Origin: Bacteroidales bacterium
GTDB taxonomy: Bacteria; Bacteroidota; Bacteroidia; Bacteroidales; VadinHA17
Direction of reading: 5' to 3'
DNA: 57,046 nucleotides
Assembly (NCBI GenBank): GCA_003141415.1
Contig: PLLX01000059.1
Coordinates: forward strand, 4,069-61,114
The notes under the pieces were generated by a model, which saw only the letters and a list, made by a program, of their open reading frames with translations, had not been told where the DNA came from and did not search any database. Below are positions 52,513 to 52,577 of this stretch, piece by piece; the first letter of the stretch is position 1, and each line of letters opens with the position of its first letter. A program made the position numbers and the translations under genes.

Positions 52513-52577
52513 TGTGAATGATGTAACTTATTACAGGAATAATGTAACGGTTAGAGTACACCCCAGGCCTACCTTTG
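52513..52577 (+). promoter_or_regulatory. Copy B of the 36-bp TGTAAC direct-repeat element plus TACCTTTG -7 box
   Basis: TGTGAATGATGTAACTTATTACAGGAATAATGTAAC at 52513-52548; TACCTTTG at 52570-52577. Confidence 0.78.

What the first reader, a model, noticed from the sequence alone, without database searches (positions are those of the whole stretch)
52513..52577. A 36-bp direct-repeat promoter element with AraC-like geometry defines a candidate regulon
Seen directly: copy A (minus, 42465-42430) TGTAAATGATGTAACTTAATAAAGCAATTATGTAAC and copy B (52513-52548) TGTGAATGATGTAACTTATTACAGGAATAATGTAAC match at 31/36 positions. Each has two TGTAAC boxes exactly 21 bp apart (two helical turns), and each is followed by the same Bacteroidetes-like -7 box TACCTTTG with identical spacing (repeat end to box start differs by 22 in both). 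The distal box would overlap the -33 region, as expected for a class II activator site. Both lie about 100-120 bp upstream of lmo0937-like small membrane genes. AraC-family proteins commonly bind direct half-sites about 21 bp apart, and an AraC-type gene sits immediately upstream of copy B. That this protein binds these sites is inference.
Basis: partly seen in the sequence, partly recalled or inferred. Interest (0 to 1): 0.85.

Follow-up and report, generated by a model that had tools for sequence, protein, structure and literature searches.

The report
AraC-type stress regulon in Bacteroidota
The two repeated promoter sequences belong to a set of about 39 in this genome that also occurs across Bacteroidota, most at a fixed distance before a promoter, in front of stress-protection genes and beside one small AraC-type regulator, so the bacterium probably has a dedicated stress-gene switch that was not described in the papers I could search.

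Summary
The two copies (42465-42430 minus, 52513-52548 plus) match at 31/36 positions and are followed after exactly 21 nt by TACCTTTG. A weight matrix built from this genome finds a third window copy (56133) and 39 copies in the genome stretches fetched; the whole genome gives 35 pattern matches against 0 for the reversed pattern. Consensus: TGTGAATnATGTAACTTnTTnnnAAATTATGTAAC, two 15-bp half-sites in direct repeat, period 21, with a YAnnTTTR -7 box at exactly 21 nt in 133 of 203 sites.

The matrix finds 176 sites in 79 loci from other Bacteroidota around homologs of the AraC-type protein at 51871; 20 permuted matrices find none. In 51 of 105 such araC genes the element starts exactly 2 nt before the stop codon. 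In independently drawn genomes, sites lie beside araC far more often than chance. Targets include SOD, ferritins, universal stress proteins, CsbD, YceI, DUF5670, cupins and araC paralogs.

Best explanation: this AraC protein (Atx1/HMA-like N-terminus plus AraC HTH) activates sigma-A promoters of a general-stress-like regulon. Binding, activation and signal are inferred. No description was found in the open-access papers searched.

The parts
42430..42465 (-). Element copy A (TGTAAATGATGTAACTTAATAAAGCAATTATGTAAC), 39.4 bits
42401..42408 (-). Sigma-A -7 box TACCTTTG, 21 nt after copy A
   Evidence: fixed spacing
42154..42312 (-). DUF5670 / lmo0937-family small membrane protein, 117 bp downstream of copy A
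41765..42094 (-). 109-aa predicted membrane protein (no Pfam); same family as 52808-53137, recurs downstream of elements in relatives
51871..52431 (+). AraC-type regulator, 186 aa, TTG start: N-terminal Atx1/HMA-like fold with CxxC, C-terminal AraC HTH; proposed binder of the element
52513..52548 (+). Element copy B (TGTGAATGATGTAACTTATTACAGGAATAATGTAAC), 45.4 bits; 82 bp after the araC stop codon
52570..52577 (+). Sigma-A -7 box TACCTTTG, 21 nt after copy B
   Evidence: fixed spacing
52652..52759 (+). 35-aa lmo0937-like fragment, first ORF after copy B
52808..53137 (+). 109-aa predicted membrane protein, paralog of 41765-42094
53191..53346 (+). DUF5670 / lmo0937-family protein
53387..53644 (+). 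YtxH-like protein
53682..54125 (+). Cupin-like protein (reading by eye; no Pfam match), recurs in 13 of the related loci
54165..54917 (+). Holin-X-like membrane protein (below Pfam cut-off) and a downstream protein of unknown family, conserved neighbours in 22-23 loci
54907..56010 (+). AI-2E family transporter, conserved neighbour in 28 loci
56133..56168 (+).
56406..57046 (+). PAS-domain protein, cut by the window end; homologs are PAS-HisKA-HATPase-REC-Hpt hybrid kinases

Best explanation
The element is the operator of a large activator-controlled regulon. A dimer of the 186-aa AraC-type protein at 51871 (or a close paralog) binds two 15-bp half-sites in direct repeat, period 21 bp. With the usual numbering for this phylum (-7 box at -12 to -5) the element spans about -69 to -34, so the promoter-proximal half-site abuts the -33 region, and the protein recruits sigma-A RNA polymerase to a promoter that has a good -7 box but little -33 box. 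The controlled genes are general-stress genes: superoxide dismutase, ferritins, universal stress proteins, CsbD, YceI, YtxH/DUF5670 small membrane proteins, cupins, a PAS hybrid kinase, and the regulator's own paralogs (feedback). Shown: the element, its numbers, its half-site geometry, its fixed -7 spacing, its linkage to this araC family, the target list, the predicted fold. Inferred: binding, activation (not repression), dimerisation, and that the N-terminal Atx1/HMA-like domain is where a signal (a metal, redox state or a partner protein) enters.
For: 35 pattern matches in the genome against 0 reversed; 39 matrix sites, iterated from 11 exact seeds. Half-site similarity peaks at offset 21 (0.60 against 0.16-0.52 at other offsets; AATnATGTAAC shared). 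YAnnTTTR box at exactly 21 nt in 26/39 own and 107/164 relatives' sites. Own-genome matrix finds 176 sites in 76 of 79 araC loci of other Bacteroidota; 20 permuted matrices and the reversed matrix find 0. Element begins 2 nt before the araC stop codon in 51/105 araC ORFs; 26 have one upstream or divergent. In a sample of 399 genomes drawn without regard to araC position, 6 of 66 sites outside G000 lie within 1.5 kb and 20 of 66 within 25 kb of an araC hit, expected 0.07 and 1.2, seen at sequence level. Paralog on contig C252 sits 267 bp after an element; araC paralogs are direct targets in 8 relatives' sites. Of ORF families shared between loci araC is the only DNA-binding one among those most shared (90 of 101 loci). 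Targets by Pfam: Sod_Fe, Ferritin, Usp, CsbD, YceI, Rieske, Glutaredoxin, DJ-1. AlphaFold model pLDDT 88 with AraC HTH and Atx1/GolB-like N-terminus. HTH region more conserved than N-terminus (0.85 against 0.72), recognition helices 0.90-0.92.
Against: No binding or expression data. The 79 loci were selected for araC, so their linkage alone is circular in part; the independent test is. Genome G194 has two good elements but no detectable homolog of the protein. A third paralog in this genome (C260) has no element nearby, and about half of sampled Bacteroidota genomes carry an N-terminal-domain homolog (188 of 399) while only 31 carry the element, so the family must have members with other sites. 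About a third of sites lack a -7 box at 21 nt. CxxC is not universal: Cys13 is invariant but Cys10 is Ser in 23 of 105.
Confidence: 0.77

Rival explanations
1. The element is bound by a different regulator (for example a LytTR-type response regulator, which also binds direct repeats about 21 bp apart, or a regulator downstream of the PAS hybrid kinase), and araC is merely one of the genes of the cluster.
For: A PAS hybrid kinase occurs in 42 of 101 loci and 10 of 20 distant loci, and a receiver-only protein in 21 loci. G194 has elements without the AraC protein. Direct repeats at 21 bp are not unique to AraC (own knowledge).
Against: No other DNA-binding protein family is among the widely shared neighbours. 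The kinase has no DNA-binding domain and the receiver protein is receiver-only. The kinase itself lies downstream of elements, as a target. Element is placed within or beside araC in families where little else is shared (G100, G216, G029).
Confidence: 0.13
2. The protein does bind but acts as a repressor, or as a narrow metal (copper) sensor; the 'general stress' reading of the targets is too broad.
For: The N-terminus models like copper chaperones Atx1/GolB and bears MxCxxC. One target has heavy-metal-binding domains (HMBD).
Against: The site ends about 34 bp upstream of the start with a degenerate -33 region, the activator position; a repressor would be expected to cover the core promoter. 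Targets are not copper efflux genes. Cys10 is lost in 23 of 105 proteins.
Confidence: 0.08
3. Mobile or chance repeat without regulatory role.
For: Copies cluster (C252, C199) and one shuffle of 200 reached 29.5 bits.
Against: Fixed 21-nt -7 spacing, zero hits of permuted matrices, conservation across families, flanking sequence not shared between copies.
Confidence: 0.01

Closest known systems
AraC/XylS-type activator sites (AraC araI1-I2, XylS at Pm, MtlR at PmtlE)
   Same: Direct-repeat half-sites about 15 bp long, about 21-22 bp apart, just upstream of the -35/-33 box. MtlR: 15-bp blocks at -72 to -58 and -50 to -36, site at least 37 bp long upstream of -35 (PMC4514859). Here about -69 to -34.
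   Different: Known members mostly control one catabolic operon in Proteobacteria; here about 39 sites in one genome, in stress genes, at Bacteroidota sigma-A promoters (-7 box TAnnTTTG, PMC9723704).
SoxS/MarA/Rob stress regulons of enterobacteria
   Same: AraC-type HTH protein controlling many stress genes including superoxide dismutase (own knowledge); structure matches to MarA, SoxS and Rob.
   Different: MarA/SoxS bind one degenerate 20-bp site as monomers and have no N-terminal Atx1-like domain (own knowledge); here two direct-repeat half-sites.
SigB general stress regulon of Bacillus/Listeria
   Same: Overlapping gene kinds: csbD and universal/general stress genes are core SigB genes (PMC2248587).
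   Different: Controlled there by an alternative sigma factor; here the promoters keep the housekeeping -7 box and the specificity lies in an upstream operator.

Membership tests
AraC/XylS family of transcription factors (protein at 51871) | C-terminal double helix-turn-helix domain (PF12833/PF00165) | tested here: met
   HTH_18 63.1 bits, HTH_AraC 35.7 bits, above cut-offs; Foldseek to YesN, AraT, MarA, AraC
AraC/XylS family of transcription factors (protein at 51871) | Distinct N-terminal sensing/dimerisation domain | tested here: met
   Residues 2-62 model as beta-alpha-beta-beta-alpha-beta; matches Atx1, GolB, HAH1, TM (target) 0.61-0.71. Its role in sensing or dimerisation is not testable here.
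AraC/XylS-type operator (the 36-bp element) | Direct-repeat half-sites about 21 bp apart | tested here: met
   Column similarity maximal at offset 21; shared AATnATGTAAC
AraC/XylS-type operator (the 36-bp element) | Proximal half-site at or overlapping the -35/-33 region of a sigma-70/sigma-A promoter | tested here: met
   -7 box at exactly 21 nt in 133 of 203 sites; -33 region degenerate except TT. Start sites not mapped.
AraC/XylS-type operator (the 36-bp element) | Bound by the cognate AraC protein | not testable with these tools
   Needs EMSA or footprint
General stress regulon (SigB/RpoS-like role) | Many unlinked stress-protection genes under one signal | tested here: inconclusive
   SOD, ferritins, Usp, CsbD, YceI, Rieske/Grx, DJ-1 carry or adjoin the element; expression under stress unknown
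LytTR-type direct-repeat site | A LytTR protein linked to the sites | tested here: inconclusive
   No LytTR-like family appears among the 32 most widely shared ORF families near the sites, judged by inspection of the list; genome-wide presence was not tested

The most novel reading that the evidence does not exclude
The Atx1/HMA-AraC protein is the general stress response master regulator of much of the Bacteroidota, working through a sigma-A-dependent operator regulon instead of an alternative sigma factor, with signal input through its metal-chaperone-like domain and possibly through the co-regulated PAS hybrid kinase.
Probability: 0.42. Interest if true: 0.88.

Novelty: new variant of a known kind. 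Interest (0 to 1): 0.72.

Why it matters
To my knowledge Bacteroidota have neither RpoS nor the SigB system, and what coordinates their general stress genes is an open question. Here is a concrete candidate: one small regulator, one 36-bp operator, a fixed promoter geometry and a target list, present from Bacteroidales to Flavobacterium-like and Pedobacter/Mucilaginibacter genomes, so that it can be tested in cultured laboratory species. It also pairs an Atx1/HMA-like fold with an AraC HTH, a sensor arrangement I did not find described.

Tried and rejected
Plain TGTAAC-N15-TGTAAC with 2 mismatches is useless for counting (706 matches against 752 for the control); only the extended element separates from background. 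Chance or mobile repeat: rejected by permuted matrices and fixed spacing. Co-occurrence by genome alone (28/31 against 160/368, Fisher p 2e-7) was set aside as weak because kinship confounds it; physical linkage was used instead. G322 and G376 hits have 3 mismatches and look like chance; G194 does not and remains an exception (its two site-bearing contigs have GC 0.33-0.35 against 0.38-0.41 for three other contigs, so wrong binning is possible but unproven). Literature: nine term searches and the F. psychrophilum promoter study gave no description of this element or regulator; subscription journals are not in the library.

Full report
Observation. Both are followed by 21 nt and then TACCTTTG. 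The genome in which the window lies (a 5.26-Mb assembly in 279 contigs, 82% complete) has just these two exact matches to TGTAAC-N15-TGTAAC-N20-24-TAnnTTTG, but eleven exact TGTAAC-N15-TGTAAC matches, which share a longer pattern. A matrix grown from these gives 39 sites in the fetched stretches, with consensus TGTGAATnATGTAACTTnTTnnnAAATTATGTAAC. The extended pattern with up to 3 mismatches matches the genome 35 times, the reversed control never. In the window a third copy lies at 56133. A matrix built without any window site still ranks the three window copies far above everything else (33.9-42.9 bits, next 5.1).

Anatomy. The best internal similarity is at offset 21: TGTG-AATnATGTAAC and CAAA-AATTATGTAAC. 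So the unit is not TGTAAC alone but a half-site of about 15 bp, twice, in the same direction, on the same face of the helix. A YAnnTTTR box lies exactly 21 nt after the element in 26 of 39 own and 107 of 164 relatives' sites, other offsets being scattered. Among 134 sites with that spacing the only further conservation is TT at the -33 region. The -7 consensus of housekeeping promoters in Flavobacterium is TAnnTTTG (PMC9723704), with an equivalent box placed at -12 to -5. The element would thus span about -69 to -34. This is the layout of class II AraC/XylS activator sites; the footprinted MtlR site has 15-bp blocks at -72 to -58 and -50 to -36 (PMC4514859).

The protein. The 186-aa protein at 51871 has an AraC HTH. 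Its AlphaFold model (pLDDT 88; N-terminal strands and helices in ferredoxin order) matches AraC-type HTH structures and, at its N-terminus, copper chaperones such as GolB and Atx1 (the N-terminal matches have weak E-values of 0.05-0.1 but TM-scores of about 0.6-0.7 by target length). Among 105 relatives Cys13 is invariant, Cys10 is Cys in 80 and Ser in 23. The HTH part is more conserved than the N-terminus, and its recognition helices most of all.

Link between protein and element. A search for the protein in named genomes brought 79 loci from Bacteroidales, Marinilabiliaceae, Prolixibacteraceae, Pedobacter, Mucilaginibacter, Arcticibacter and others. The matrix, which had never seen these genomes, finds 176 sites in 76 of them; twenty column-permuted matrices and the reversed matrix find none. 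In 51 of 105 araC ORFs the element starts exactly 2 nt before the stop codon, so that its TGTGAAT carries the TGA; 26 have an element upstream or divergent. Because those loci were chosen for araC, I ran an independent test: 399 genomes drawn evenly from the phylum were searched for the element and, separately, for the N-terminal domain. Of 66 listed element sites outside the own genome, 6 lie within 1.5 kb and 20 within 25 kb of an araC hit, where 0.07 and 1.2 are expected. Reading ten of these genomes at sequence level confirms it, with araC inside or beside clusters of up to nine elements. Kinship still links some of these genomes, so these figures are not independent events.

Targets. In the own genome genes with an element in front include Fe/Mn superoxide dismutase, ferritin, a universal stress protein, CsbD (three), YceI, a zinc-type oxidoreductase, DUF5670 (four loci), a heavy-metal-binding-domain protein, and the second araC paralog. 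Further ferritin-like, Usp, Rieske, glutaredoxin and DJ-1 genes lie in the same 26-kb island, contig C252, often in apparent operons. Across relatives the commonest targets are a 115-aa cupin-like protein directly after araC (32), DUF5670 (18), CsbD (16), a 109-aa membrane protein (11) and araC paralogs (8). CsbD and universal stress genes are core SigB genes in Bacillus and Listeria (PMC2248587). Hence 'general-stress-like'; no expression data were available.

Rivals. Among ORF families shared near the sites, araC (90 of 101 loci) is the only DNA-binding one in the top of the list; the next is a PAS-HisKA-HATPase-REC-Hpt hybrid kinase (42 loci), and a receiver-only protein occurs in 21. These could be part of the signal path, or targets. 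A different binder is not excluded: genome G194 has two good elements and no homolog of this protein. The reverse also holds, since 188 of 399 genomes have a homolog of the N-terminal domain but only 31 have the element, so the family has members with other operators.

Status of the claims. Shown by computation: the element, its count, geometry, promoter spacing, taxonomic spread, linkage to this araC family, and target list. Inferred: that the AraC protein binds, that it activates, that it dimerises, what it senses. Novelty is judged only against the open-access library searched; subscription papers were not available.

Noticed in passing
window 56133-56168 and 56406-57046: Third element copy, without a -7 box at the usual spacing, 237 bp upstream of a PAS-domain ORF cut by the window end. 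Homologs are PAS hybrid histidine kinases found in 42 of 101 loci with the element, so kinase and regulator may form one signalling system.
   Followed up: partly
L034:11163-12068 (contig C252): The second araC paralog is followed directly by a histidine kinase with HisKA and HATPase domains and no recognisable sensor domain.
   Followed up: no
G000 contig C260:20724-20960: Third araC-type N-terminal domain in this genome, open for only 81 aa (39% identity), with no element in 18 kb around it; perhaps a fragment or a free-standing Atx1-like protein.
   Followed up: partly
window 52652-52759: A 35-aa ORF after copy B resembles the start of DUF5670 proteins and looks like a truncated copy.
   Followed up: no
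many related loci, e.g. L107:11264-13495 and L095:12119-13159: A group 1 glycosyltransferase protein (36 loci) and a GH130 mannoside phosphorylase (34 loci) recur near araC, suggesting that glycan synthesis or turnover belongs to the stress cluster.
   Followed up: partly
G194 contigs C28 and C77 (L149, L150): Two good elements in a genome with no detectable homolog of the AraC protein, both within about 250 bp of a contig end; either another binder or misbinned contigs.
   Followed up: partly
G011 and G016 contigs (L137, L140): Variant element TGKGATAAATGTAACTCTTTnnAAAAGTTATGTAAC in a family whose nearest AraC homolog is only 33-35% identical: a possible case of regulator and operator changing together.
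   Followed up: no
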